DNA from: a virus
Reading direction: 5' to 3' (one strand)
DNA: 45,857 nucleotides
IMG/VR virus record: IMGVR_UViG_3300027796_000004
Span: 1 to 45,857 of that record
In this document: piece after piece, positions 1 to 45,857 of the stretch
How the letters are laid out: the number at the start of each line of letters is the position of its first letter
Position numbering within the stretch: position 1 is the stretch's first letter
The notes under the pieces: model-generated
The model's database searches: none
Seen by the model: only the letters and a program-made list of their open reading frames with translations
What the model was told of the DNA's origin: nothing
Position numbers and translations under genes: made by a program

Positions 1-127
1 AATGAATTATAATATTGGAGAATATGGATTAGGACAAGCACATATTAAAATAGATGATATTGTATTTGATTTATGGACTACTTGGATTGATGAGGATGGA
101 GATTTTAATTTATTTGATATGAATAAA
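1..127. repeat. Terminal direct repeat, left copy
   Basis: These 127 bases are identical to the last 127 bases of the window (45731-45857). The reading frame of the licD-like gene continues exactly through the join. This is what a circular contig looks like when the assembler leaves one k-mer of overlap; 127 is a common maximum k-mer length. A genuine short terminal redundancy of the virion DNA is less likely because the repeat lies inside a gene and has no special features. Confidence 0.95.
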
Positions 128-301
128 ATTTCCAATACAATATTACCGTTATCAGATTGTAGTTTATATGGTATTAATTTTAAAGCCCCAAAAAATGCTA
201 AAGAAATATTATCTAAAATATATGGTAATGACTGGATGATTCCAATAATAATGAAGCCGTCTAACGATGGGAAATATATACAATTAAAGGAGGTGGAGTA
301 A
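2..301 (+). CDS. LicD-like phosphotransferase, 3' part (continues from 45438)
   Basis: This is the C-terminal half of the gene that starts at 45438 and crosses the circle junction; position 2 is the same base as 45732 and is in frame. An ATG lies at position 2, but it has no ribosome binding site and is an internal methionine. The fragment supplies the C-terminal 99 residues of a 197-residue protein. It ends in KEVE, where GAG-GTG-GAG also serves as the Shine-Dalgarno of the next gene (ATG at 302, right after the TAA). See the 5' part for domain evidence. Confidence 0.8.
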   Translation: MNYNIGEYGLGQAHIKIDDIVFDLWTTWIDEDGDFNLFDMNKISNTILPLSDCSLYGINFKAPKNAKEILSKIYGNDWMIPIIMKPSNDGKYIQLKEVE

Positions 302-481
302 ATGAGAATGGTTGCTAAAAGTATGTCTAGCGAAGAAAAAAAGTGGAGATTAGAAGACGATGTTAGAACACTTCGTAATTATGCAGAGTTAAAATCTGAT
401 AAAAATAGATACGATGCTGCAGTAAAATCTTTAAAGGAAAGCGTTGCAGATGTTCAAAAAGTAATTGATAATACTAAATAG
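302..481 (+). CDS. Small conserved phage protein, 59 aa
   Basis: A 59-residue charged protein that starts directly after the licD-like stop, with GGAGGTGG as ribosome binding site. The N-terminal half reads SMSSEEKKWRLEDDVRTL, a pattern I have seen in short proteins near phage head genes (recollection, not a search). It is probably helical throughout and lacks membrane segments or cysteines. The function is unknown; the position between portal-linked genes and the scaffold suggests a head-assembly or DNA-associated role. A strong promoter begins 9 bases after its stop, so it ends one transcription unit. Confidence 0.75.
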   Translation: MRMVAKSMSSEEKKWRLEDDVRTLRNYAELKSDKNRYDAAVKSLKESVADVQKVIDNTK

Positions 482-489
482 GTTGTTTA

Positions 490-518
490 TTGACAATCTA
501 TTTTTTTAGTGTTATATT
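490..518 (+). promoter_or_regulatory. Sigma70-type promoter for the capsid genes
   Basis: TTGACA at 490-495 is a perfect -35 box. It is separated by 17 bp from TATATT at 513-518. Transcription would begin near 525, giving a roughly 90-nt leader ahead of the scaffold and capsid genes. Capsid protein is needed in large amounts, which fits an extra promoter here. Confidence 0.75.
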
Positions 519-2879: not shown

Positions 2880-2885
2880 ATTAAG

Positions 2886-2909
2886 AGAACTAGAAATAGT
2901 TCTTTTTTT
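2886..2909 (+). terminator. Rho-independent terminator after the capsid unit
   Basis: Perfect 7-bp stem AGAACTA/TAGTTCT with GAAA tetraloop (2886-2903) followed by six T (2904-2909). The CTAGAAATAG core recurs in the terminator at 19441-19473. It separates the abundant capsid mRNA from the glycosyltransferase gene. Confidence 0.8.
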
Positions 2910-2910
2910 A

Positions 2911-2919
2911 TGTTATAAT
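2911..2919 (+). promoter_or_regulatory. Extended -10 promoter for the glycosyltransferase
   Basis: TGTTATAAT is a perfect extended -10 element (TG at 2911-2912, TATAAT at 2914-2919). It lies two bases after the terminator and 22 bp ahead of the start codon. No -35 box is evident, which extended -10 promoters tolerate. Confidence 0.6.
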
Positions 2920-2940: not shown

Positions 2941-4128
2941 ATGGAAAAACTGTTATTGTATTCTGCTCAGCTTAACAATATTGGAGGAATTGAAAGATTC
3001 GATATTAATTTTTGTAAGAGAATGAGTAAGTATTTTGATATTACTTTTGTTTATGATACGGCGGATAAAGAAAGATTATCTGAAATAAAAAAATATGCTA
3101 GTGTAGAAGAAAATAAAGGGAAACCGTTTAGTACCGATATTTGTTTATATTCTACTGCGTGGGGAAAGATAGATGATTATCAGATAGACGCAAGAGATTA
3201 TAGAGCGTTAATACACGCTGATCTCACACAATATAAACATAGTATGTTTTTTAACTATATTAGAAGACCATTGGTTGCTAAACACGCATGTGTTGGTAAG
3301 AATGTTGCTAACTCATTAAAAATAGAATACGGTATAACTGGAACAGTAATATATAATTTATTAGATAATGATATAAAGTATGAAAAACATATTAAAAAGA
3401 GATCCAAAGACGTTCTAAATATAATTGTATTATCTAGAATAAGTGGAGAAAAAGGTTTTGAAAGATTAATAAAGTTTTTAACAACGGTTAAAAAGTCCGG
3501 AAGAAAAGTAAAAGTAACAGTCTATGGAGATTCATATGACGGGGATTATGAGAGAAGTATAAAAAGTCAAATGAAGATGTTTGGTAACTTCGTAGAGTTT
3601 AAGGGTGCTATATGGAATGTAACTCAAGCGTTACATGATGCTGATTATTTATTTCAATTAAGCGATACAGAAGGAATGCCATATTCTCCTAGAGAGGCTT
3701 TACAAGTTGGAACTCCAGTAGTATTAACTGATTTCCCAGCCGCTCATGAAATAGTAAAAGATGGAGTAAATGGATATATATTAGATATGAATTTAAAGAA
3801 TCTTGATTTAAATAAGTTATTTAATGAAATACCAATAGATTTTGAATATAAAGAAGAATCTACTGAGCAAGATTGGATAGATTTCTTGAAATATAATCCA
3901 AATGAAATGTTTAAAGTTAAAAATACAGCCTATTATACTGATTTAAGAAGAAATAAAGACTTTGATGTGAATGATCCTCCTAGATTAGAATCACTTTCCA
4001 GAGCTTTAGAGTTAATAAAGAGAAAATTCTGTAAATTTGTAATAGGAAATAAGGAAGAAACCAAAATAAAACAAGATTACGCCATAGATCAATCATTGCA
4101 GAACATACTTAGTGCTTTAAAGAAGTAG
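2941..4128 (+). CDS. Glycosyltransferase, GT4 family
   Basis: A 395-residue GT-B fold glycosyltransferase that transfers a sugar from a nucleotide-sugar donor. The N-terminal domain begins LYSAQLNNIGGIERF, the typical glycine-rich GT4 opening. The C-terminal Rossmann domain starts at IIVLSRISGEKGFERL and contains the EX7E-type motif EGMPYSPREAL, followed by GTPVVLTDFPAAHEIV and NGY, which bind the donor nucleotide. There are no membrane segments. I chose the ATG at 2941 because GAGGTG sits six bases upstream; the in-frame GTG at 2932 is inside that site. The gene has its own promoter and terminator, like a moron inserted between the capsid and connector genes. The acceptor (virion protein, wall glycan or DNA) is unknown. 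Confidence 0.88.
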   Translation: MEKLLLYSAQLNNIGGIERFDINFCKRMSKYFDITFVYDTADKERLSEIKKYASVEENKGKPFSTDICLYSTAWGKIDDYQIDARDYRALIHADLTQYKHSMFFNYIRRPLVAKHACVGKNVANSLKIEYGITGTVIYNLLDNDIKYEKHIKKRSKDVLNIIVLSRISGEKGFERLIKFLTTVKKSGRKVKVTVYGDSYDGDYERSIKSQMKMFGNFVEFKGAIWNVTQALHDADYLFQLSDTEGMPYSPREALQVGTPVVLTDFPAAHEIVKDGVNGYILDMNLKNLDLNKLFNEIPIDFEYKEESTEQDWIDFLKYNPNEMFKVKNTAYYTDLRRNKDFDVNDPPRLESLSRALELIKRKFCKFVIGNKEETKIKQDYAIDQSLQNILSALKK

Positions 4129-4146
4129 ATTTATCTACTCTTTTTT
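4124..4146 (+). terminator. Terminator after the glycosyltransferase
   Basis: Stem AGTAGA/TCTACT with loop TTTA (4124-4139), then C and six T (4141-4146). The left arm contains the glycosyltransferase stop codon (TAG at 4126-4128). Confidence 0.75.
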
Positions 4147-4160
4147 ATTTGCCACAAATG

Positions 4161-4169
4161 TGTTATAAT
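4161..4169 (+). promoter_or_regulatory. Extended -10 promoter for connector and tail genes
   Basis: TGTTATAAT (TG 4161-4162, TATAAT 4164-4169), the same nine bases as the element at 2911-2919. It lies 21 bp before the start codon at 4190. No clear -35 box is seen at the usual distance. Confidence 0.6.
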
Positions 4170-4189
4170 TATGATAAGGAGTGATATAT

Positions 4190-4618
4190 ATGGTTTTAAG
4201 AGATATTGCTGTTGTCAGCAACTATGTTGCTGCCGACGAGTCTATGAATACTAGTAATATAATTAGTTATGCTAATGGTTGTATATCAGAAATAAACACT
4301 AAAACTGGCACTAATTTACCATTTTTTGTTCAAGCAAATTATGATACTACTGAATATGACGCCGTAAGCGATAGTTGGTTGTTAAGATTAGTAGAGCCTT
4401 ATCTATCTTATATGATAATGTCTAACGACGATAACGCTGAGCAAAGAAATTTTCACTATAGAAGATTTCTAGATGCTGTAAGTGATTTTAAATCTAAAGG
4501 ATATAGTGCTATAAAACTTTTAACATCGCTTGGAGCTGCAACAGGATATGAAGGAAGTGCTGTTAGAAGCGTCGTAATAGGAACTAGTGATAGAACAGTA
4601 ACCTATCAGAGGTGGTAA
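4190..4618 (+). CDS. Head-tail connector (adaptor) protein
   Basis: A 142-residue, mostly helical protein between the head genes and the nozzle gene. The pattern (an N-terminal helix, SYANGCISEINTKTG, then a helix with WLLRLVEPYLSYMI and FHYRRFLDAVSDF) resembles the gp6/gp11-type adaptors that bind under the portal of podoviruses and siphoviruses. The ATG at 4190 is preceded by AAGGAG at proper spacing; a GTG at 4181 overlaps that site and is rejected. The stop is followed at once by the ATG of the nozzle gene. The family assignment is tentative and rests on size, helical pattern and position. Confidence 0.6.
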   Translation: MVLRDIAVVSNYVAADESMNTSNIISYANGCISEINTKTGTNLPFFVQANYDTTEYDAVSDSWLLRLVEPYLSYMIMSNDDNAEQRNFHYRRFLDAVSDFKSKGYSAIKLLTSLGAATGYEGSAVRSVVIGTSDRTVTYQRW

Positions 4619-4619
4619 T

Positions 4620-7130
4620 ATGGCTACAGAACAATATTTAAAAGGATTGCCTGGTAAAAGATACTCGGTAATAAATAATTTTAATAAGGGTTATAACACC
4701 TCAGTTTCTGACGGTGTTTTGTCAGATAACGTATTTAGAACACTAGTAAATTATGAGATGAAAGAAGAAGGAATAATAAGTAAAAGAAAAGGGTTGAAAG
4801 ACAACGGATTAGGGGATTTAGTTAAAATGTTCTATGATTTAGTAGCAGATCCTACTAGTTTTACTGATTTATTAAATCCTGGAGTAACATTTAGTACAGT
4901 TTTAACTGGAAAATTAAATGGAGCTACTAGTAATTCACAAAACGCTCATAATGAGATTTTTAAAATGCTAAAAGATACTATAACTTATACTGACGCTAAT
5001 ACTGCGTCTGAGAGTATAAATGTAATATATGATAAAGTTATACACTTAAATATTATAAATGATCAAATGATAAATGATTTTAATGAATTTGAAGAAAATA
5101 TGTTGTTATGGGATATAAAGAGTGAAGTTGAATTTGATATTATACTAGGCGGATATTATATGTTTAAATCAGATTTATCATCATATTTAAATCCAGTAAA
5201 AAAGAATGTATTTAAATATATTAAATGTAAGGTAAGTTTAGATAATGCTTCTAGTTTAATTGAATCTCCAGAAATAACATTAAGTTTAGATATAAAAGTT
5301 GATAAAACAACAGCTATAACTACCAGTACAGTAACAAGTAAAATAAACCTATTAGATAGTAGATTATATGATCAAAAATTTTTGAAGGTAATCACATATA
5401 ACGATAAGAGTTATTTTACTACTGGATATAACCTATACCAAATAAGTGCTGGATTATTAACTATAATTAGTGCTTCAAACGCATATAAACCAAATGCTAT
5501 AGAAATTTCTAATATAGGATTTAATATATTAGCAACTACTCCATTGGAGTATTTTGATAGTGGAACGGGAACTGTGGACGCTATTAAAGGTGTATTCTTA
5601 ACATTGAGCGGAGAGCCAGTTAAGTCTATACCTACAGTCTACACTACAACGGTAAATAAAGAGTTTAAAATAAATGTTATAGCAAAAGGCTCTACTGCAT
5701 TAGGAACTCCAAAATATAGACCTGATAATGGAGAAATAGATGAAACATTGAATCCATATAAAGATTTAACTGGATCTTACGGAGCTAGTCCTAATACTCA
5801 TATATTTACTTGTACAGATTTTAACTTGGAAGGTAAATTTGAAATTAAAATAACAAAAGGGGAAACAGCAATTCCTTATATAGGATATTTTACTGCAGAA
5901 CCTCAACAAATAAAAGAAATAGGAAAAGTATCGGATGTTGCAGCAATAGTAAATAGTTCATTATATTGTATGATAATGAATAATCAACTAGTATTATATG
6001 GCGGACACGGATATATATTCTTTAGTGAATATGATAATTTCTATTATTTTCCAAACTATAACTATATATATGCTATAGATGAAAGCGGAGAAGAAGTAAA
6101 TACAATAAAATATTTTAGACAATTTTATGCTGTATCATTAGGGAAGAAATGGAAAAGATTATCTGGAAGTTTCCCATTCTCCGGAGATACAGATGGATTA
6201 TTCCCATTAAATGACTTCGTTGGTTGTACTAATCCTAATAGTATAAGACAAATAGAGAATAACTTAGTATTCTTATCTAAAAACGGATTATATATGTTAA
6301 AACAAGGATATACAGGCGAAGGAACTGAAAATATTCAACAAATAGATTTAGGAATTTTAGGAGACTATCCTAAAGATGATGTTATGAATGCAGTAGTTAA
6401 AGGTAACACGTATGTATTAACTATGGGGAATATAGTATTGATATATAATTATGCACTTGGTGCGTATTATAAATATATATATAACGTTACAGAAGATACT
6501 GGATATACATCTGTTTTATCTGCTTTATTTAGTAAAGATTCTTTTGGAATAGATTATTATATATGTAAGATAATAAATAAAACATCAGACGATACAAAAC
6601 AATTAAAAATATTAGATTTTGAATCTGAAGATATTTATTCAGATGATGGCAAAGCATACAGTTCATATTTTGCATCATCAAAGATATTCTTAGGATATCC
6701 TACAAACAATAAGAAGTTCAAAAAGGTGTTTGTAAAGGGTTATAACGATGGGAATGGATTAATACCATTATACGTAGTAATAAAAGTTGATGGTGTGCCT
6801 GTAATGACACCAGAAACGTATTATATTAGAATAGATAGCGATACTAGTTATGTTTATTATGAAAAAGAAGTAAATACTAACGCTGCATTGAATTTAAAAA
6901 TTGGAGCAGTATTAGGAGAATTAGTATTAGGAGAAACTTTACTTGGAGCTATTAGAACTCAGAATATAGAGTTATCTTTATCAGAGACTGAGGCTAAAGG
7001 TAAAAGTATATCTATTGAATTGTACGATATATATCCTGGAGAAGAAGGAGATATTGGAAGCAATACTAAACCATTTTCTATATCAGACATTGGTATTGTT
7101 TATAAATTGAAGAAAGTTAAGGGGGATTAG
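4620..7130 (+). CDS. Tail nozzle / tail tubular protein B-like
   Basis: An 836-residue protein. The opening (VINNFNKGYNTSVSDGVLSD, then NYEMKEEGIISKRKGL) follows the pattern of T7 gp12-type nozzle proteins: a glycine-containing phrase, a list of positions, then a short R/K-R-x-G-L. Such proteins begin with residues that lie along the tube and continue as a beta-propeller. The rest is strand-rich with many aromatic repeats (YGGHGYIFFSEYDNFYYF, WKRLSGSFPFSGDTDG), consistent with a propeller. Ribosome binding site GAGGTGG overlaps the connector's last codons. It would form the hexameric tip of a short tail. No membrane segments or cysteine motifs stand out. Length is close to T7 gp12 (about 790). 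Confidence 0.7.
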   Translation: MATEQYLKGLPGKRYSVINNFNKGYNTSVSDGVLSDNVFRTLVNYEMKEEGIISKRKGLKDNGLGDLVKMFYDLVADPTSFTDLLNPGVTFSTVLTGKLNGATSNSQNAHNEIFKMLKDTITYTDANTASESINVIYDKVIHLNIINDQMINDFNEFEENMLLWDIKSEVEFDIILGGYYMFKSDLSSYLNPVKKNVFKYIKCKVSLDNASSLIESPEITLSLDIKVDKTTAITTSTVTSKINLLDSRLYDQKFLKVITYNDKSYFTTGYNLYQISAGLLTIISASNAYKPNAIEISNIGFNILATTPLEYFDSGTGTVDAIKGVFLTLSGEPVKSIPTVYTTTVNKEFKINVIAKGSTALGTPKYRPDNGEIDETLNPYKDLTGSYGASPNTHIFTCTDFNLEGKFEIKITKGETAIPYIGYFTAEPQQIKEIGKVSDVAAIVNSSLYCMIMNNQLVLYGGHGYIFFSEYDNFYYFPNYNYIYAIDESGEEVNTIKYFRQFYAVSLGKKWKRLSGSFPFSGDTDGLFPLNDFVGCTNPNSIRQIENNLVFLSKNGLYMLKQGYTGEGTENIQQIDLGILGDYPKDDVMNAVVKGNTYVLTMGNIVLIYNYALGAYYKYIYNVTEDTGYTSVLSALFSKDSFGIDYYICKIINKTSDDTKQLKILDFESEDIYSDDGKAYSSYFASSKIFLGYPTNNKKFKKVFVKGYNDGNGLIPLYVVIKVDGVPVMTPETYYIRIDSDTSYVYYEKEVNTNAALNLKIGAVLGELVLGETLLGAIRTQNIELSLSETEAKGKSISIELYDIYPGEEGDIGSNTKPFSISDIGIVYKLKKVKGD

Positions 7131-7131
7131 T

Positions 7132-9165
7132 ATGGCAAAGCTAACATTAAGAACTAACTTTTTAGACGGTCAAATCCTTTATGGAAACGATTTAAATTCT
7201 ACAAATGCTCAGGTAATGGCTGCTGTAAACGATCATCACGATTCTATAGAAGAAATAATAGCAGAGTTAAACACACTTCCAAACGAGATGAAAGAATACG
7301 TTGATGTTCAGATTGGATTAGCCGCTGAAGATTTTGCATTAACTGACGCATATAAAAGTGATATAGCAGATTTAGAAGGGGAAATTTCATCTGTAAGTGA
7401 AGTTGCAACTCAAAATCATGACGATTTAATATTATTTACAGACGAAACTTATGTTAATGATAAATCTGCGATTCAATCACAAATAGATGGTAAAATTGAA
7501 AGCTATTTTCAAGAAACAGATCCTAATGATTGGTTAGAAGCTGATAGAATTAAACATGATGGAGATATGTGGTATTGTACTGATACGGATATATTAAAAT
7601 TATATAGATATAATTCAACTTCAGATACGTGGGAAGAAATAACTGATAAAGCTGCTTTAGATGCTTATGAATTGGCGTCTAATGCTGCATCAACTGCCGA
7701 TGGAAAATGTGCTACATTTATGACGACTCCAATTCCTCCATATAATGTTGGAGATTTATGGGTTGGCGGAGGAAACTCTGATTTAAAAAGATGTATTGTT
7801 GCAAGGGCTACAGGAGATTATGATGCTGACGATTGGGAATTAGCAACTAAATACACCGATGATAGTGGATTAGATACTTTTGTAAATGGGAGTTATGCCG
7901 ATTTAGTTAATGCAGTAGATGGAATAGTTAGTTCATATTTTTCTTATGATGATCCATCTATATTATGGGATAACGATACTAAAAAGAATTTGCATGTTGG
8001 AGATTTATGGAGAGATAGAAATACAAATATAAGTTATAGATATGATAAGTCTACAGACGAAATTCCAGTATATAGTTGGCAAGAAGATGATATTCCATCT
8101 AGTATGTTTGATTTAATTGATGGAAAGAAATCCGTTCATACATTAAAACCTACGGAATATTCTGCTAACGATATGTTTATAGTTCCGCCAGGATTAGAAG
8201 ATCTTCCCGATAATATTAAAGTTGGGGATATATTAGTATCAAGTCAAGCAAATTTAACTTTTGATTGGGCTGACTGGAATAAATTAGTTGGATATGTTCA
8301 ACAAGATGTAATTGATGCAGCTTTAGCTCCTATTCAACAAAATCTTACTGACGTTATAAATGATTTAGATTTAAATAATTCAAGCAGTAAATTGAGCCAG
8401 ATTATTCAATCAATAAATGCGGTCACTACTAACTTTCAAATTAAGGGTGGAGCTAATTTAATAGTAAATAGTTTACAATTATTTAGTCAATTAAATAGTG
8501 ATACATTTGAAAAGGATGGAACTTGGGAAATTAGACAAAACCAAGATATTTCAAATAATACAGTATCAAATTTTATGAATTATTCTACAGAATCAGGATA
8601 TTTGAAATGGACTATAAGAGTCAATCCTAATACCGCTTATACTCTATCTATGATTTATAATAATCCTATAGGTGTAGTTTCTAAGTTAAAATTAACTAAC
8701 GGAACTTTAACCGAATTAATAGATACAGATGATGAAAAATTAAATGAAAATTTTGAATATGGTTTCGTAACTAATTCAAACGTAATAATTATAGAAATAA
8801 ATACAAACGGAGCAGAATTTGGATATAGTGATCTAATGTTAAACTATGGAGCATTGATAGAAAACGATGTAATAAGTGCTAATGCGTTAAAATGGCAACC
8901 AGCTCCAGGAGAAAACTTTGGAACAACAATAAAAATGTCTTACGAAGGTATAGAAGTAAGAATGAAAAGCGGGTTATTTAAACATATTATGGATAATACT
9001 GGAGATAGAATAGTATTATTAGATGAAAATGGAGCAGAGTTATCAACCGTAACTGAATTTGATGAAAATGGAATAACAACACCATCAGGAGTATTTAGTG
9101 ATAAAATATCAGTTGGGGTGTTTACCCAATTATCAGTAGATACAGAAAACGTTATAGAATTTTAG
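7132..9165 (+). CDS. Tail protein with repeated W-rich modules
   Basis: A 677-residue tail protein starting two bases after the nozzle stop. Residues 1-115 begin LTLRTNFLDGQILYGNDLN and are followed by a helical region, as in proteins that anchor fibres to the tail. About residues 120-340 hold three to four related modules with a GDxW core (DGDMWYCTD, VGDLWVGG, VGDLWRDR), each followed by a Y-R-Y or similar strand and a W-E/W-Q end. Such modules occur in tail and baseplate appendage proteins of Gram-positive phages and are thought to bind sugar. The C-terminus (about 440-600) resembles a jelly-roll carbohydrate-binding domain (ANLIVNSLQLFSQLN, then SGYLKWTIRVNPNTAYTLS). It probably links to the fibre and helps adsorb to host glycans. 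Confidence 0.65.
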   Translation: MAKLTLRTNFLDGQILYGNDLNSTNAQVMAAVNDHHDSIEEIIAELNTLPNEMKEYVDVQIGLAAEDFALTDAYKSDIADLEGEISSVSEVATQNHDDLILFTDETYVNDKSAIQSQIDGKIESYFQETDPNDWLEADRIKHDGDMWYCTDTDILKLYRYNSTSDTWEEITDKAALDAYELASNAASTADGKCATFMTTPIPPYNVGDLWVGGGNSDLKRCIVARATGDYDADDWELATKYTDDSGLDTFVNGSYADLVNAVDGIVSSYFSYDDPSILWDNDTKKNLHVGDLWRDRNTNISYRYDKSTDEIPVYSWQEDDIPSSMFDLIDGKKSVHTLKPTEYSANDMFIVPPGLEDLPDNIKVGDILVSSQANLTFDWADWNKLVGYVQQDVIDAALAPIQQNLTDVINDLDLNNSSSKLSQIIQSINAVTTNFQIKGGANLIVNSLQLFSQLNSDTFEKDGTWEIRQNQDISNNTVSNFMNYSTESGYLKWTIRVNPNTAYTLSMIYNNPIGVVSKLKLTNGTLTELIDTDDEKLNENFEYGFVTNSNVIIIEINTNGAEFGYSDLMLNYGALIENDVISANALKWQPAPGENFGTTIKMSYEGIEVRMKSGLFKHIMDNTGDRIVLLDENGAELSTVTEFDENGITTPSGVFSDKISVGVFTQLSVDTENVIEF

Positions 9166-9182
9166 AAAGGATGTGATTATAT

Positions 9183-11936
9183 ATGGCTACACTATTAAAT
9201 ACATATTATACATATTATAATGGTAGTGGGAACAATTCTCCGTTATCTGGTGGAGACTGGAGATGCTATTTTAAAGTATATTTAGATAGTCAGGATGTAG
9301 CGGGAAATTATTCTGCTATGCACGTAGATACATACATACAATTTGCTAATCAGCCTAGTGGTGCAACTAGCAGATCGTGGATTTACCAAAATACAATAGA
9401 TGGAACAATGCACGGTAATACTATGCCTACCGGATATAATCAAACACCAAATGATTGGTTAGTTTATGCCCCACCGGCTGGTAATAGTACGAAATATTTA
9501 GCTACAGAATATATGAATGTATATCACGGTTCAGACGGAACAAAAAATGTAAGTATGTATTTTAAAGGTGGACGTTGGGCTAACGTTTCGGGAATACCTA
9601 CATATTATGTAATGTCTTCTGGAACTTGGTATTATAATCTTCCTACTATACCACGTTATGCAGCTATAACTAGTTTTAATGCTAATGTTAATAGCCCTAC
9701 TAATGTAGCGTGTTCTTGGTCTACAGATAAAACGGTAAGTGCCGTTTACTATTCAACAGATGGAGGATCTAACTGGTCAGCTAGTGTTGGAAGTGGAACA
9801 TCTGGAACATTCAATATAAGTGGATTAGCTACTAATACTACATATAATATTATGTTAAAAGTAACTGCCGGAGATAGTGGATTACAAACTACATCTGGAA
9901 GTTTATATAGAACAACTTGGTATTTAAGCACATCTGCATTTAGTAATTTCAATCTAGGAACAAATTTTACTGCTAACGTTACTAGAGCAGATGGAAGTAT
10001 AACACATAATTTAGAGGTATATTGTAAAGATCCTAGTGCGGGAAGTTATACTTTAATAAAAACATATTATGATGTTACTACTTCGCAAGAGATATCGTTT
10101 ATTTCGGGGGAATTAGCTACAATATATGCACTAGTTCCTAATAGAAATGATGTGGCAATATCTATAACTACAGTTACTAAAATAGGCGGCACAGTATATG
10201 GATATACATATTCATATCAAACTTGCTATGTAGTTGATGCTAATCCTATATTTACTGATTTTGCTTTTGAAGACACTAACGCTGCGACGTTAGCTTTAAC
10301 TGGAGATTCTAGTAAATTTATAAGAGGATATAGTAACGCTCAAATGACTGTTTCTGCTGCTAATAAAGCAGTTGCTCAAAAAGGTGCTACTATGTCTACA
10401 TACTCGTTCGAGAATGCAGGATTAACAACTCCTACACCAAAAGCGTATAGTGCTGTTGCTTCTGTAGTTGAAACATTAAATGGAGTATTAAATGCTAACT
10501 TGGTAGTAAGAGCGACTGATAGTAGGGGTAACAATACTACTAAGACAAAAACAATAGGAACATTTATAAACTATACTGCTCCTGTTGTTTCTACTAGAAC
10601 TATATATAGAACGGATAATGTTGATGATGAAACTACACTAACATTTAGCGGAACTTATAATGATTGGTCTGGATTGTCAGTAGCTAATACCATATATAAC
10701 GCTAAATATAGATATAAAGAAGTTGGTGGTGCTTGGAGCGGATATACTAATTTAACTCTAGCGACTAACGCAAGTGGAGCATTCACATTTAATAATAAAA
10801 TAAATGGAGATTTAGGAGCATCTGGATTTACCACAACAAAGACTTTTGAAATAGAAATAACTATAACAGATAAATTAAGTAGCGTAGTATATAGCGGATT
10901 AATATTAAACTCTGCACAGCCATTATTATGGAAATTTAAGGGATTAGTTAGTGATACATTAAAAAGTATATTGGGAATAGGAAGAAAACCTGATACTTCA
11001 TTACCAAACGGAAGTATACATGTTGCTGGAGATATAAAAGCAGACGGGACAATATATGGAATAGTATCTGGGGATACATTTCCAATAGGTGGAATGATGC
11101 CTTGGACATCTGACACAATACCCGAAAATTGGTTGTTGTGTAATGGTCAAGCAATATCAAGAACTACATATAATTTACTTTATGCTGTAATAGGCACTAC
11201 ATACGGAGCAGGAGATGCTTCCACAACGTTCAATGTACCAGATATGAGAGATTATGTACCAGTTGGAAAAAGTTCAACTGATGCTAATATTAATGCACTT
11301 GGAGAAAAGTATGGTGCTCAAACAAATATATTAACACTAGACCACTTGCCTTATGATGTTGTTGTGTCTAATGGACCAGCAGTTTCAAATGGTTGGTGTA
11401 CAGGTATTTGGAATAATTTCACAGGTGCATATTCTACTAATGCAAGAGGTGCTTTAGGAACTCACGGTCAAGCCCACAATAATATGCAAAAATCTATTGC
11501 CACTAACTACATAATAAAAGCATTTCAAAGTTCAGGAGTAGTAGCAACAGTAGTTGATAACTTAACGAGTACATCTGCTACCAATGCTTTATCTGCTAAT
11601 CAGGGCAAAGTATTAAATGAAAAACACAATAACGAAAGTTGGACTGCACCAACACTTCAAAACAGTTGGATAAATTATGGTGGCGGATTTCAAACAGCAG
11701 GATATTATAAACATGATGGTAGAGTTTATTTAAGAGGACTTATAAAATCAGGAACAATGACACAATTAGCATTTACTTTACCTGCAGGATATAGACCAAC
11801 AGCAACTGAAATATTTGCAGTATTAAGTAATTCCGCTTTTGGATCAGTATATGTATATGCAGATGGTAATGTAACTCCGATTGTTGGAAATAATGCAGCC
11901 GTATGTCTTGATGGAATAAGCTTTAGAATAGATTAA
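9183..11936 (+). CDS. Tail fibre / receptor-binding protein with collar domain
   Basis: A 917-residue modular fibre. Residues 1-160 resemble the DUF859-type N-terminal beta-sandwich of streptococcal phage tail proteins, ending in a W-Y-Y-N-L-P-T-I-P-R linker. Residues about 160-245 look like a fibronectin type III domain (NSPTNVACSWSTDKTVSAVY). Further beta-rich repeats run to about 610. Residues about 632-780 are a phage tail collar domain: FPIGGMMPWTSDTIPENWLL, CNGQAISRTTYNLLYAVIG and the FNVPDMRDYVPVG segment. Then comes the widespread fibre motif DNLTSTSATNALSANQGKVL and a small C-terminal beta domain likely to be the receptor-binding tip. The collar and tip use a module known to be exchanged between phages. 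Confidence 0.8.
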   Translation: MATLLNTYYTYYNGSGNNSPLSGGDWRCYFKVYLDSQDVAGNYSAMHVDTYIQFANQPSGATSRSWIYQNTIDGTMHGNTMPTGYNQTPNDWLVYAPPAGNSTKYLATEYMNVYHGSDGTKNVSMYFKGGRWANVSGIPTYYVMSSGTWYYNLPTIPRYAAITSFNANVNSPTNVACSWSTDKTVSAVYYSTDGGSNWSASVGSGTSGTFNISGLATNTTYNIMLKVTAGDSGLQTTSGSLYRTTWYLSTSAFSNFNLGTNFTANVTRADGSITHNLEVYCKDPSAGSYTLIKTYYDVTTSQEISFISGELATIYALVPNRNDVAISITTVTKIGGTVYGYTYSYQTCYVVDANPIFTDFAFEDTNAATLALTGDSSKFIRGYSNAQMTVSAANKAVAQKGATMSTYSFENAGLTTPTPKAYSAVASVVETLNGVLNANLVVRATDSRGNNTTKTKTIGTFINYTAPVVSTRTIYRTDNVDDETTLTFSGTYNDWSGLSVANTIYNAKYRYKEVGGAWSGYTNLTLATNASGAFTFNNKINGDLGASGFTTTKTFEIEITITDKLSSVVYSGLILNSAQPLLWKFKGLVSDTLKSILGIGRKPDTSLPNGSIHVAGDIKADGTIYGIVSGDTFPIGGMMPWTSDTIPENWLLCNGQAISRTTYNLLYAVIGTTYGAGDASTTFNVPDMRDYVPVGKSSTDANINALGEKYGAQTNILTLDHLPYDVVVSNGPAVSNGWCTGIWNNFTGAYSTNARGALGTHGQAHNNMQKSIATNYIIKAFQSSGVVATVVDNLTSTSATNALSANQGKVLNEKHNNESWTAPTLQNSWINYGGGFQTAGYYKHDGRVYLRGLIKSGTMTQLAFTLPAGYRPTATEIFAVLSNSAFGSVYVYADGNVTPIVGNNAAVCLDGISFRID

Positions 11937-19524: not shown

Positions 19525-19611
19525 TGGTGTGTCGTATGGGAGTTGAACCCATATACTAAAATCTTCGTTTAGTGATCGATCTAAAATGCTCTACCATTGA
19601 GCTAACGACAC
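19525..19611 (-). tRNA. tRNA, anticodon not resolved
   Basis: Read on the minus strand, a 7-bp acceptor stem GTGTCGT/ACGACAC closes the molecule. It is followed by an A discriminator and an encoded CCA (19525-19527). The D arm is GCTC-AATGGTA-GAGC and the T arm is ATGGG-TTCAACT-CCCAT. The 35 bases between them are longer than in an ordinary tRNA. A CTAAA segment can pair either with TTTAG before it (eight-base loop ATCGATCA, possible CGA anticodon) or with TTTAG after it (loop CGAAGAT). The gene is therefore a type II-like, unusual or decayed tRNA, and I do not assign the amino acid. Confidence 0.65.
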
Positions 19612-40769: not shown

Positions 40770-41090
40770 ATGAAGTTTAAAATGAATGATCACGAATGGG
40801 AAATATTGGAAATGTCCAATGATGAAATAAATAAAAGAATTAATGATGATAGCGGAGAATATGTTTATGGTTCTACTGAATATAGTGGGATGATAATTTA
40901 TTTAAATAAAGATATTAAAAATAAAAGATCTACGTTGTATCATGAATTGTGTCATTGTTTTTTATACGAGTATGGTCATAATCAATGGAAGAGTAAGTTT
41001 AATTATGAAGATGTATGTGAAATAGTTGGAAGTTCACACGATATTATTCATAAGATATCTGATGATTATTTTAAGGATAGTGGTAAATAA
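40770..41090 (+). CDS. Zincin-like metalloprotein, HExxH
   Basis: A 106-residue protein. Residues 52-70 include STLYHELCHCFLYEYGH with the zinc motif HELCH and a third possible ligand further on. The preceding strand (YGSTEYSGMIIYLNKD) fits the short ImmA/IrrE- or SprT-like zincins found in phages. It has no signal peptide. The location between small and large terminase genes is unusual. Overlaps the large terminase start (TAATG). Substrate unknown. Confidence 0.65.
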   Translation: MKFKMNDHEWEILEMSNDEINKRINDDSGEYVYGSTEYSGMIIYLNKDIKNKRSTLYHELCHCFLYEYGHNQWKSKFNYEDVCEIVGSSHDIIHKISDDYFKDSGK

Positions 41091-42649
41091 TGTTTAATGA
41101 TATTGAGTTGATTGAAGAAAGTAAAACGGAGCGTATTTTTAGATGCCCCGTTTGTAATAATGGAACGATAACTATAAATAAACAGAGTAAGAAGTTCTAT
41201 GGTTATTGTAATGTGTGTAATGCGTGTTATATAGATTATGTTCCGTTGCCCCACCAGATGGACGTGCATAAAAGCGATTCGAAATTGAAATTATTAATTG
41301 GTGGTAAAGGTTCGGCTAAATCTAGAGCTGGAGTTTTAGAAATAATAGATCACGGTTTATCTGTTCCGAATGGGAGAACGTTACTAATGGCTCAGACGTT
41401 ACAACAGTTGTCGAGAGCGGTTATACCAGTATTTAAAGAATACTTACCGATGAAGTTTGTAACTGAGTGGCACGATACGAAACAGAATATTTCTATTAAG
41501 TTAAGTAATGGTCATGAGTTTATTGGATATTCGAGTAAAGATGATGAGACGTTTAGGTCTATGGAAATAACTGCGTTTTTATTAGAAGAAATGTCTGGTA
41601 TTAATCCAGATACATGGTTTGAGTTGATACAGCGTTTGAGAAATCCAGCCGCATCGTATTTGAATATGCCTGATAGTAAGGATCATTTTTTGGGTATAGG
41701 TATATCGAATCCGTCTCAAGGATTTATAAGAGATTTATTGTTTACTGCATCGAAGATTACTGGTAGCCCTAGTATTAAAGATACGGTTGCTATGTATATC
41801 GATAGAGTAACAGAACCGAATCCGGATTTAGAAGCGTTTTTAAGTAGTAGTAGAGATAATACGTTTTTAGCTCCAGGTGTTTTAAATACGATTATAAATA
41901 GTTTAAGCCCATCACAGGTAAGATTAAATGTAGATTGTATTATTGAATATGCCGAAGGTGCTGTTTATCCTGATTTTTTAAAGTATGTATGTGATGATAT
42001 GAAACCAGATCCTAACTGGAAATATTTTCTAGCACACGATCCAGGTATAAGAGATCCGTCTGCTGTATTGTTGTGTGGGTTTAATGAAGATAGTGGCGAT
42101 TTATATTTAATAAATGAGTTTTATAAAACTGATAAGGTATTAACGGAAGTTGCGAATGCGATTAAAGATATTATAAAACCGATTCCAACGGGTATGTTGA
42201 ATCAGCCGTTAATAGATCCATCAGCAGCAAAAAGAAGCCAGATAAACGCTAGAACGTATAAACAGCAGATGCAGTTGGAGCATAATTTGATATTTAAATT
42301 AGCGAATAATAATATAGTTGATGGTATAGCTAAAACTAGAGATATGATGTATAAAGGTAAGATACATATTTTTAGAAGCTGTAAGAATACTATAATGGAA
42401 GGATGCGAATATAGATATCCTACTCCAGAAGAGAGAAAGTCTAATAAGAATATTGGAGATAAGCCGATAGATAAGTTTAACCATTTAATGGACTGTCTAA
42501 GATATATTGTACAGGACATACCCTATAATCTTGTTTTTAAAGAAAGATTAGTATATAATAAGGATATGGGAATGATGGGTAATATAATGATGAATGATGC
42601 GTTTAAATCTAAGAAAAATAAAAATTCTGTAGGAGGTTATAGAATATGA
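41090..42649 (+). CDS. terL: Terminase large subunit
   Basis: A 519-residue DNA-packaging motor. It opens with a Cys4 zinc ribbon (FRCPVCNNG, C19/C22, and YCNVCNAC, C40/C43), then the ATPase: Walker A GGKGSAKS (71-78), Walker B TAFLLEEMSG (161-170), and GISNP (204-208, likely coupling motif). The RNase H-like nuclease follows: HDPGIRDPSAVLL (D317), LIDPSAAKR (D376) and DKFNHLMDCLRY (D468). It pumps DNA through the portal and cuts it. Its ATG overlaps the zincin stop, and the portal gene follows one small gene downstream. Confidence 0.92.
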   Translation: MFNDIELIEESKTERIFRCPVCNNGTITINKQSKKFYGYCNVCNACYIDYVPLPHQMDVHKSDSKLKLLIGGKGSAKSRAGVLEIIDHGLSVPNGRTLLMAQTLQQLSRAVIPVFKEYLPMKFVTEWHDTKQNISIKLSNGHEFIGYSSKDDETFRSMEITAFLLEEMSGINPDTWFELIQRLRNPAASYLNMPDSKDHFLGIGISNPSQGFIRDLLFTASKITGSPSIKDTVAMYIDRVTEPNPDLEAFLSSSRDNTFLAPGVLNTIINSLSPSQVRLNVDCIIEYAEGAVYPDFLKYVCDDMKPDPNWKYFLAHDPGIRDPSAVLLCGFNEDSGDLYLINEFYKTDKVLTEVANAIKDIIKPIPTGMLNQPLIDPSAAKRSQINARTYKQQMQLEHNLIFKLANNNIVDGIAKTRDMMYKGKIHIFRSCKNTIMEGCEYRYPTPEERKSNKNIGDKPIDKFNHLMDCLRYIVQDIPYNLVFKERLVYNKDMGMMGNIMMNDAFKSKKNKNSVGGYRI

Positions 42650-42890: not shown

Positions 42891-44726
42891 ATGGATGCAG
42901 ATAAAGAATTGATTGGTAAATTAAATAAGTTAATTACTTCTGCGGTTAATTATAGAAAATCGCAGAGAGATGAAGAGTATATAAATAACCAAGCACACTA
43001 CGAAGGTGTATATTGGAATTTAGCGTCATATAATTCTGATTCTCCATTTATTTTAAAGAGTGATATTAACCACGTTAAAAATGCGATAGATTTAAGACTA
43101 GCGTCTATTTATGCTAACGATTATTGCGGAGATTTATTACCAATGTCTCCAGATGATACTGATACAGTAGATGTTTTAGAAACGTTATATAAATATGAGT
43201 GGAAACGTTTAGGAATGAATAGTTTTATAAAAAAGATAATAAAAGATGCCGTAGTTTTAGGCGATGGATATTTACAAATATCATACGATCCAGATAAGAT
43301 TATAGGTGGAACTAAAACCAGAATGGAAGGTTTAATTAAAGTAAATTATATTCATGCGACTACTGTGTATATAGATCCTAGTGCTACTAGCGAAGAAGAT
43401 GCAGATTATATAGTATATAAAACCAGAAGAAGTAAAGATTGGGTTGAAAGAGAGAGACCGTCTTGGATGAGTAAGTTGAAAGAAGCGTCAGCAGATTCTA
43501 CTACGTATTCTGGAGGACAGGAAGATGGAGAATTGTATTCTTCTAGTAGAGATTATACTAACGAGCAAGATAATTTATTTATATTAAATACTATATGTTT
43601 AAAAGAAAAGTTTGAGAACAAGACTAAAGATGGAGAAAAAGTAATAGGAACTAAAGTTAATATCTATTATATTATAAATAATACTATAGTAGAAAGTAAT
43701 ATTGAGTTTCCGTTTGATTTCTTCGATATTGCTAAAATATCATGTGAAGATATTCCTCAAACGCCATACGGATTACCATTGATGAGAGGATTAACTGTTC
43801 CTTGTAAAGTAGCTAATTTAATAGAGAGTGCTATAAATAATGTTGCGATGCACTATACTGTTCCATCTTGGATGATATCTGAAGAAAGTGGAATAGATAT
43901 AGATGAATTTGCTAAGTTACAAGCGGCTTTAGGAGTTGTATTTAAAGTAAGCGGAGATGTAAAAACCGCAATAGCACAAGTTCCATATCCAATAATTGAT
44001 GATAAGTTAGTACAATATGGAAAAGAGTTCGTAAATTATATTAGAATGTATGCTGGAGTTAATGATCAGTATATGGGAAATATAGGAAGTGCCGGAAATA
44101 CATCTGGAGGAACTAATGCAGCAATAGCGAGAGCTACTGCAATAGATGTGTTATTAATAGAACAAATAGAAAAGTTTGTAGAAAACTTCTCTAGAAAATT
44201 AATAAAGTATATGATAAAGTATTATGCTGATAAAGAAATATTTATTAGAGATAAAAATAATAAAAAGTATACATTTAAAAGTTATACAATAAAACAAGAG
44301 TTTGATGATATAGATTTTGACTTCAGTATAGATTTAACTTATAAGACTAGAAACGACAAGGATAGACAATATTCAGAGTTAAAGAATATATATCAATTAC
44401 AAAATCAATATAAAGACTCTAAACCATTAATAAGATCATTAGATTTAGTTAAAGCTGCTCAATTAGATGAATTCTCAGAATTATTTAAGAGAAACTTGAA
44501 TTTAACCGAAGAAGCTTGGGCTGAGAAAATTGAGTTAGCATTACAAATAATGCCATCACTTGGATTAACCGACGCCAACGGAGTTGCCTTAGTAACGCCA
44601 GAAGAGTTCCAAAAAGGTATGATAGATATATTTAATGACGATAACGATTTAGAAGTAGTTACCGGAATAATAAAGAAAATGGAAATGGCTCAAGAACAAA
44701 GCGTTGAGCCTACTCCTACGGTTTAA
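42891..44726 (+). CDS. Portal protein
   Basis: A 611-residue portal protein, forming the ring through which DNA passes. Features: N-terminal helices with YRKSQRDEEYINNQAHYEGV and NHVKNAIDLRLASIYAND, a central VLGDGYLQISYDPDKI, PYGLPLMRGLTVPCKVANLI, and the late helix NTSGGTNAAIARATAIDVLL, arranged as in podovirus portals. The length fits. It is immediately downstream of terL and upstream of the scaffold, as usual except for the two glycan genes in between. Its last bases (TAATAATG) lead directly into the cytidylyltransferase gene. Confidence 0.85.
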   Translation: MDADKELIGKLNKLITSAVNYRKSQRDEEYINNQAHYEGVYWNLASYNSDSPFILKSDINHVKNAIDLRLASIYANDYCGDLLPMSPDDTDTVDVLETLYKYEWKRLGMNSFIKKIIKDAVVLGDGYLQISYDPDKIIGGTKTRMEGLIKVNYIHATTVYIDPSATSEEDADYIVYKTRRSKDWVERERPSWMSKLKEASADSTTYSGGQEDGELYSSSRDYTNEQDNLFILNTICLKEKFENKTKDGEKVIGTKVNIYYIINNTIVESNIEFPFDFFDIAKISCEDIPQTPYGLPLMRGLTVPCKVANLIESAINNVAMHYTVPSWMISEESGIDIDEFAKLQAALGVVFKVSGDVKTAIAQVPYPIIDDKLVQYGKEFVNYIRMYAGVNDQYMGNIGSAGNTSGGTNAAIARATAIDVLLIEQIEKFVENFSRKLIKYMIKYYADKEIFIRDKNNKKYTFKSYTIKQEFDDIDFDFSIDLTYKTRNDKDRQYSELKNIYQLQNQYKDSKPLIRSLDLVKAAQLDEFSELFKRNLNLTEEAWAEKIELALQIMPSLGLTDANGVALVTPEEFQKGMIDIFNDDNDLEVVTGIIKKMEMAQEQSVEPTPTV

Positions 44727-44728
44727 TA

Positions 44729-45463
44729 ATGAAAACTGTCTTTACAACAGGCAGTTTTGATCTTCTACATACCGGGCATATAAATTTATTAAGGAGGGCT
44801 AAAGAAGATAATAATTTTGTTATAGTTGGGCTTAATAGCGATGAATTAATAGCAAGTAAAAATCCTATATATACTTATGAACAAAGACGAAATCTGTTAG
44901 AAGCAATAAAATATGTCGATGCTGTAGTTCCAATTAGAGTTCAAGAAGATAAATTTATGTATATTACGGAATTAAAAGTTGATGAATTTGTAATCGGAGA
45001 TGATTATAAAAATCATCCTGATTTAGATATTATAAGAAATATGTGTTCTGTTAGAATATTGGAGAGAACTCCAGATGTTTCAACTACTAGAGCAAAAGAA
45101 ATGATACACAATACATTTGTAATAGATATAGATGATACTATATCAATAACCCACGATAGAGATTTTGAAAATTCAGAACCTATTCAAGCGGTTATAGATA
45201 AAATAAATGAATTGCATAATCAAGGATTTAGAATAATATTATTTACAGCAAGAGGTATGAAAAGTACGGGAGATCCAGAGTTAGCCAAGAAGAAATATTT
45301 TGATATTACTTCAAAGTGGCTGATCAGCCATAACGTTATTTATGATGAGTTGATATTTGGAAAACCCAATGCTGATTATTATGTAGACGATAAATCATTA
45401 CCAATAAGTGAGTTTTTGAAATTTGGAGGCGGAATAGATGAATCAAAGGAAAAAGTTGTTTAA
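44729..45463 (+). CDS. Cytidylyltransferase-HAD phosphatase fusion
   Basis: A 244-residue two-domain enzyme. Residues 1-125 are a TagD/TarD-type nucleotidyltransferase: TVFTTGSFDLLHTGHINLL with the HTGH catalytic motif (14-17) and the RTPDVSTTRAKEM end (113-125) equivalent to R-T-x-G-I-S-T-T. It would make a CDP-activated polyol or choline. Residues 128-244 are a HAD hydrolase: FVIDIDDTISI (DIDDT, 133-137), IILFTARG (169-176), FGKPNADYYVDDKS (K212, D220-D221). The HAD half would act on a phosphorylated sugar or polyol, perhaps preparing or removing the substrate. The gene starts two bases after the portal stop and overlaps the licD-like gene by 26 bases. Confidence 0.85.
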   Translation: MKTVFTTGSFDLLHTGHINLLRRAKEDNNFVIVGLNSDELIASKNPIYTYEQRRNLLEAIKYVDAVVPIRVQEDKFMYITELKVDEFVIGDDYKNHPDLDIIRNMCSVRILERTPDVSTTRAKEMIHNTFVIDIDDTISITHDRDFENSEPIQAVIDKINELHNQGFRIILFTARGMKSTGDPELAKKKYFDITSKWLISHNVIYDELIFGKPNADYYVDDKSLPISEFLKFGGGIDESKEKVV

Positions 45464-45857
45464 TGAATTTACTAGAGAAAGAAAAATTGATATGGTAAAA
45501 ACTCTTCAAAAGTTTAGTCTACCAAATAATTTAACTTTTCTTCATTGTGGAACGTTACTAGGATCTATACGAGATGGAATATTGATAGAACATGATGATG
45601 ATTTTGATATAGCGTATTTATCTAATTATCATACCAAAGAAGAAATAAGAAATGAAATGCTTGATATTTATAGATATCTAAATTCAGAGGGAATGTTACT
45701 AAAATACTTTGATTTGAATTATAAGGATGTAATGAATTATAATATTGGAGAATATGGATTAGGACAAGCACATATTAAAATAGATGATATTGTATTTGAT
45801 TTATGGACTACTTGGATTGATGAGGATGGAGATTTTAATTTATTTGATATGAATAAA
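45438..45857 (+). CDS. LicD-like phosphotransferase, 5' part (continues at 1-301)
   Basis: Starts at ATG 45438 after GGAGGCGG and overlaps the previous gene; continues through the circle junction to 301 as one 197-residue protein. Residues about 33-60 carry the LicD/fukutin signature: FLHCGTLLGSIRDGILIEHD and DDFDIAYLS, matching the family's G-T-x-L-G-x-x-R...I-x-x-D-D-D-x-D-I. LicD transfers phosphocholine (relatives transfer phosphoribitol) from a CDP donor to a glycan. A CDP-forming enzyme lies directly upstream, so the two probably work in sequence. No signal peptide; a cytoplasmic enzyme. Confidence 0.8.
   Translation, partial: MNQRKKLFNEFTRERKIDMVKTLQKFSLPNNLTFLHCGTLLGSIRDGILIEHDDDFDIAYLSNYHTKEEIRNEMLDIYRYLNSEGMLLKYFDLNYKDVMNYNIGEYGLGQAHIKIDDIVFDLWTTWIDEDGDFNLFDMNK
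45731..45857. repeat. Terminal direct repeat, right copy
   Basis: Exact copy of positions 1-127. Joining the two copies gives a circle of about 45,730 bp and restores one complete gene (45438 through 301). Confidence 0.95.

What the first reader, a model, noticed from the sequence alone, without database searches (positions are those of the whole stretch)
44729..45857. CDP-donor enzyme, HAD domain and LicD transferase embedded in the head operon
A cytidylyltransferase fused to a HAD phosphatase starts two bases after the portal gene and overlaps a LicD-like gene by 26 bases. TagD-type enzymes make CDP-polyols and LicD-type enzymes transfer phospho-groups from CDP donors to glycans. Translational coupling to portal suggests production during head assembly. 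The phage may add phosphocholine or a polyol phosphate to its own virion or modify host teichoic acid, perhaps blocking superinfection. I do not know of a described phage pathway with this layout, but I cannot exclude one.
Basis: partly seen in the sequence, partly recalled or inferred. Interest (0 to 1): 0.78.

Follow-up and report, generated by a model that had tools for sequence, protein, structure and literature searches.

The report
Phage kit for phosphate-decorated sugars
This uncultivated phage carries, among the genes that build its particle, a three-enzyme kit (a glycosyltransferase, an enzyme predicted to make a CDP-activated small molecule, and a LicD-type transferase) that probably puts phosphate-bearing sugars on its own particle or on its host's surface; the parts are known one by one, but I found no description of this combination kept among head genes.

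Summary
A 244-aa TagD-like cytidylyltransferase fused to an EcbF/BcbF-type HAD phosphatase starts 2 nt after the portal stop without a Shine-Dalgarno, and overlaps a LicD gene by 26 nt. The window is one complete genome with a 127-bp terminal repeat, so the 'cut' LicD is whole (45438-45730 + 1-301, 197 aa); a second contig spans the junction. LicD is supported by Pfam, four invariant Asp matching FKRP's essential Asp, and a fold search returning FKRP. In the only divergent relative found (TerL 73%, MCP 73%), GT4, a HAD-less cytidylyltransferase and LicD are contiguous after the capsid genes, bounded by terminators and extended -10 promoters; the portal-scaffold gap is empty. A Paenibacillus podophage has neither. 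So GT4 + cytidylyltransferase + LicD is one accessory module kept among late structural genes; the HAD is optional. Best reading: a CDP-donor/LicD pathway decorating a sugar placed by GT4, probably on a virion protein, less surely on host glycan. Donor and acceptor are unproven. Precedents: IspD+LicD in Flandersviridae, lone TagD in marine phages, glycosylated mycobacteriophage capsids. A new variant of a known kind.

The parts
44729..45463 (+). Fused TagD-like cytidylyltransferase (aa 1-126) and EcbF/BcbF-type HAD phosphatase (aa ~128-232); no Shine-Dalgarno, starts 2 nt after the portal stop
45438..45857 (+). LicD-family transferase, 5' part (45731-45857 is the terminal repeat)
1..301 (+). 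LicD-family transferase, 3' part across the circular junction (1-127 repeats 45731-45857); whole protein 197 aa, seen intact in L002:3738-4331
2941..4128 (+). GT4 glycosyltransferase, third enzyme of the module (longest ORF starts at 2932; ATG 2941 follows AGAGGTG)
42891..44726 (+). P22-like portal gene to which CTP/HAD is probably translationally coupled (context)
480..518 (+). Terminator stem 480-499 plus T-run, overlapping a TTGACA-17-TATATT promoter-like site 490-518: ends the portal/CTP-HAD/LicD unit and starts scaffold-MCP
2882..2919 (+). Terminator and extended -10 promoter-like TGTTATAAT (2911) directly upstream of GT4
4122..4169 (+). Weaker terminator (z -1.8) and extended -10 promoter-like site (4161) directly after GT4
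302..481 (+). 59-aa ORF of unknown function after LicD, no counterpart detected in L047
1491..2516 (+). Major capsid protein (PF25209), context

Best explanation
An accessory glycan-phosphorylation module of a probably virulent podovirus. GT4 adds a sugar to an acceptor present late in infection; the TagD-like domain makes a CDP-activated small molecule (glycerol first choice; ribitol, choline or another alcohol possible); LicD transfers the phospho-alcohol from that donor to the sugar. The HAD domain removes a phosphate from a precursor or from the decorated product and is dispensable, since L047 lacks it. The likeliest acceptor is a virion protein, giving a phosphodiester-decorated particle. 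Shown: gene anatomy, families, catalytic residues, co-retention in two diverged phages. Inferred: activities, donor, acceptor, virion location.
For: Families and motifs. LicD residues D53/D55/D57/D121 invariant in 8 diverse LicDs, the pattern of FKRP Asp360/362/364/416, all essential (PMC6965139); all ten PDB fold hits at E<1e-3 are FKRP, which uses CDP-ribitol. L047 keeps GT4, cytidylyltransferase and LicD as one block bounded by terminators and promoter-like sites, while the window splits the same three genes over two sites in the late block. Podophage API480 has neither site filled. Cytidylyltransferase near or next to LicD recurs: L102, L104 and IspD-LicD overlapping by 8 nt in MT121964. 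No integrase or resolvase found, which speaks against lysogenic conversion; no membrane segments in the three enzymes.
Against: No biochemical or mass-spectrometric evidence. The GT4 best PDB hits include PglA (lipid-linked acceptor) before SdgB, and an unrelated phage GT hits GtfA too, so homology does not identify a protein acceptor. In phages L003/L004/L005 the TagD-HAD cassette persists while the MCP type changes, which weakens 'the MCP is the acceptor'. Late expression also fits host-surface modification. TagD and EcbF/BcbF curated cut-offs are not reached. Only one divergent relative with the module was found.
Confidence: 0.5

Rival explanations
1. Same enzymology, but the acceptor is a host surface polymer or its cytoplasmic precursor (teichoic acid, capsule); decoration late in infection blocks superinfection or re-adsorption of progeny to debris.
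For: Known LicD enzymes act on host-type glycans and glycolipids; bacterial-looking clusters combine GT, Wzy_C, LicD and TagD (L108); GT4 resembles PglA/EPS transferases as much as protein transferases; Benler et al. proposed this for Flandersviridae LicD.
Against: No lysogeny genes found by the two families tested; no flippase or membrane component in the module; the genes are held among structural genes in both phages; late expression leaves little time for remodelling.
Confidence: 0.35
2. Mobile morons only: the cassettes insert at the transcription-unit borders of the head region because those sites tolerate insertion, and their function is unrelated to heads.
For: Terminator/promoter borders flank GT4 and the L047 cassette; empty in API480; TagD-HAD in TGA-recoded phages lies in a replication region fused to Stealth.
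Against: In the window CTP/HAD has no Shine-Dalgarno and probably depends on the portal for translation, and LicD overlaps it; the three genes are kept together in diverged phages.
Confidence: 0.1
3. DNA modification pathway (sugar or phospho-alcohol placed on phage DNA).
For: Phages glycosylate DNA with GT-B enzymes (general knowledge); IspD-LicD in MT121964 lies between thymidylate synthase and DNA polymerase.
Against: No thymidylate-synthase-type base-modifying gene in this genome; genes sit in the head block; LicD enzymes are known to act on glycans and glycolipids.
Confidence: 0.04

Closest known systems
IspD + LicD gene pair of Flandersviridae phages (PMC8008677); such a pair seen here in MT121964
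   Same: CTP-dependent cytidylyltransferase gene adjoining a LicD gene in a tailed phage
   Different: Non-homologous cytidylyltransferase (PF01128), no HAD, no GT, in the replication module
Bacterial TagD-LicD pairs in polysaccharide clusters (e.g. L108 with Wzy_C)
   Same: TagD-like enzyme next to LicD and a GT
   Different: Host polymer with polymerase; the phage LicD is shorter (197 aa against 245-290)
FKRP / Mf1 (LicD-fold CDP-alcohol phosphotransferases)
   Same: Catalytic Asp pattern and fold; CDP donor expected
   Different: Under 25% identity; donor and acceptor unknown here; Mf1 cut-off not met
Mycobacteriophage capsid glycosylation (Che8, Rita; cited in PMC11256854)
   Same: Phage-encoded glycosyltransferases, virion decoration
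   Different: No CDP donor or LicD mentioned there; here a virion glycan is untested
Lone TagD auxiliary genes in marine phages (PMC11515562, PMC6918029)
   Same: Phage TagD-like gene
   Different: No HAD fusion or LicD/GT module described in the passages read

Membership tests
TagD glycerol-3-phosphate cytidylyltransferase | HxGH and RTxxxST nucleotidyltransferase motifs | tested here: met
   HTGH 14-17, RTPDVST 113-119
TagD glycerol-3-phosphate cytidylyltransferase | Curated equivalog cut-off of TIGR01518 (165.4 bits) | tested here: not met
   106.2 bits; 'TagD-like' only, substrate open
TagD glycerol-3-phosphate cytidylyltransferase | Makes CDP-glycerol | not testable with these tools
   Needs an enzyme assay
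EcbF/BcbF capsule phosphatase (HAD) | HAD catalytic motifs I-IV | tested here: met
   D133xD135xT137, T173, K212, D220D221
EcbF/BcbF capsule phosphatase (HAD) | TIGR01689 cut-off (162 bits) | tested here: not met
   70.6 bits
LicD family (PF04991) | Pfam gathering score | tested here: met
   25.4 and 39.5 bits against 22.6 for window and L047
LicD family (PF04991) | Catalytic Asp residues and FKRP-like NTase fold | tested here: met
   model only moderately confident (pLDDT 61)
Mf1 cholinephosphotransferase | NF045866 cut-off (225 bits) | tested here: not met
   46.2 bits
Phage virion-glycosylation system | Glycosyltransferase among structural genes | tested here: met
   GT4 2941-4128 between capsid and head-tail genes in both phages
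Phage virion-glycosylation system | Glycan on virion protein | not testable with these tools
   Needs mass spectrometry of virions
GtrABC-type seroconversion | Temperate phage with integrase | tested here: not met
   No PF00589 or PF00239
GtrABC-type seroconversion | Membrane flippase/transferase genes in the cassette | tested here: not met
   No hydrophobic segment in the three enzymes

The most novel reading that the evidence does not exclude
The phage carries its own route to a phosphodiester-linked polyol or choline (teichoic-acid-like) glycan and puts it on its own capsid or connector during assembly, with donor synthesis translationally coupled to the portal gene.
Probability: 0.3. Interest if true: 0.78.

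Novelty: new variant of a known kind. Interest (0 to 1): 0.52.

Why it matters
If true, it would be a phage able to decorate particles with phosphate-bearing sugars, which could change adsorption, stability or immune recognition, and a compact enzyme set for adding phosphodiesters to glycans. Even if the acceptor is host glycan, the recurrence of cytidylyltransferase + LicD in unrelated phages makes a testable class of phage glycan modifiers.

Tried and rejected
LicD structure from two sequences: useless (pLDDT 34); repeated with eight. GT4 PDB profile hits to GtfA/SdgB looked like evidence for a protein acceptor, but the single-sequence search puts PglA first and an unrelated phage GT also hits GtfA: dropped as evidence. 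LicD against annotated phage records: no match. 'Listeria phage' and 'Bacteriophage sp.' hits with TagD+LicD are unverified short contigs that look like bacterial polysaccharide clusters, so not counted as phage precedents. Phosphoheptose-type reading (PHROG names) rejected: the TagD and EcbF/BcbF models fit better than the heptose adenylyltransferase model. Freeman et al. 2023 is not held, so it is cited second-hand. The host was not identified.

Full report
What is there. The window is a whole phage genome: its first and last 127 bases are identical, giving about 45,730 bp, 29.7% GC. The late block runs TerL 41090-42649, a 79-aa ORF, P22-like portal 42891-44726, CTP/HAD 44729-45463, LicD 45438 across the junction to 301, a 59-aa ORF, scaffold 615-1463, MCP 1491-2516, a 114-aa ORF, GT4 2941-4128, then head-tail and tail genes. 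Contig L002, nearly identical, shows LicD uninterrupted at 3738-4331.

Identity of the proteins. The 244-aa protein matches TagD-like cytidylyltransferases over residues 1-126 (PF01467 E 4e-19; TIGR01518 E 1e-30; PDB 2b7l/1coz E about 1e-26) and EcbF/BcbF capsule phosphatases over the rest (TIGR01689 E 1e-19; PDB 1xpj, 9iqw). Neither curated cut-off is reached, so substrate names should not be copied. Both domains keep their catalytic motifs. LicD scores 25.4 bits (cut-off 22.6) when complete. In an alignment of eight LicDs from this phage, L047, other viral contigs and bacteria, the only invariant residues are G38, L40, G42, R45, D53, D55, D57 and D121, matching Asp360/362/364/416 of FKRP, which are essential (PMC6965139). 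An AlphaFold2 model (pLDDT 61) finds FKRP in all ten PDB hits below 1e-3.

The missing partner. In L047 (TerL 73%, portal 55%, MCP 73% identity) the portal is followed directly by scaffold, and after the capsid genes come GT4 (54%), a 126-aa cytidylyltransferase without HAD (31%) and LicD (38%), then the head-tail gene. GT4/CTP overlap by 4 nt and CTP/LicD are 3 nt apart. A terminator and a TGnTATAAT promoter-like site lie just before GT4 and just after LicD in L047, and before and after GT4 in the window; the number of such words per genome is near my rough chance estimate, but their positions are shared. The distant podophage API480, homologous at TerL, portal, scaffold, MCP and two following genes, has no such genes. 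The module is therefore accessory, holds together functionally, and has moved or split within the late block. In the window CTP/HAD lacks a Shine-Dalgarno, so its translation probably depends on ribosomes finishing portal.

Recurrence elsewhere. TagD-HAD at 48-54% identity occurs in phages with unrelated heads: L005 (minor capsid - UDP-galactopyranose mutase - GT2 - TagD/HAD - NTP_transf_3 - scaffold - MCP), L003 and L004, and in TGA-recoded phages L018/L021/L022, where it is part of a longer protein of 568-576 aa; in L018, the one scanned, the rest is a Stealth phosphotransferase. Cytidylyltransferase and LicD genes occur side by side in L102 (the cytidylyltransferase fused to an oxidoreductase) and one gene apart in L104, and in MT121964 IspD overlaps LicD by 8 nt next to DNA polymerase, the arrangement described for Flandersviridae. 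A transferase expected to need a CDP donor is repeatedly packaged with an enzyme that can make one.

Mechanism. Established knowledge of LicD/FKRP (CDP-ribitol, CDP-choline, CDP-ethanolamine) and TagD enzymes gives: phospho-alcohol + CTP to CDP-alcohol; LicD moves the phospho-alcohol to a sugar; GT4 supplies that sugar. The HAD is optional; a functional precedent is Cj1435, which removes phosphate from a decorated capsule saccharide (PMC11800397; its sequence kinship to this HAD was not tested). Position among structural genes, coupling to portal, absence of integrase and soluble enzymes favour a virion acceptor, but nothing proves it, and GT4 homology is neutral. I give about 0.85 to the enzymatic module itself, 0.5 to virion decoration and 0.35 to host glycan.

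Novelty. LicD with a cytidylyltransferase in phages, TagD in phages and capsid glycosylation by phages are each published. I found no description of GT4 + TagD(-HAD) + LicD as a head-region module in the papers searched, which is a limited library.

Noticed in passing
L018:10001-11731, L021:10001-11707, L022:10001-11731: In phages whose genes read TGA as a residue, TagD-HAD is part of a 568-576-aa protein; in L018 (the one scanned) the C-terminal part is a Stealth-family phosphotransferase (PF11380 E 3e-32). Homing endonucleases and a UvrD helicase are nearby.
   Followed up: partly
L003, L004, L005 head regions: Three phages share tail-side genes and the TagD-HAD/NTP-transferase cassette but carry three different major capsid protein families; L005 also has a UDP-galactopyranose mutase between minor capsid and GT2.
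   Followed up: partly
window 1-127 and 45731-45857: Exact 127-bp terminal direct repeat: the record is a complete circularly closed assembly.
   Followed up: yes
L109 (MT121964) 4169-9188: IspD overlapping LicD directly upstream of a DNA polymerase A gene that contains an intein and HNH domain.
   Followed up: no
L107 (MT836586), L108 (OR847250): Records deposited as phage are short unverified contigs that look like bacterial polysaccharide clusters.
   Followed up: partly
window 40770-41090: 106-aa protein with an HExxH motif (HELCH), a possible small metallopeptidase, just upstream of TerL.
   Followed up: no
window 19525-19611: ARAGORN calls an odd tRNA with a four-base anticodon (cgat), minus strand.
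   Followed up: no
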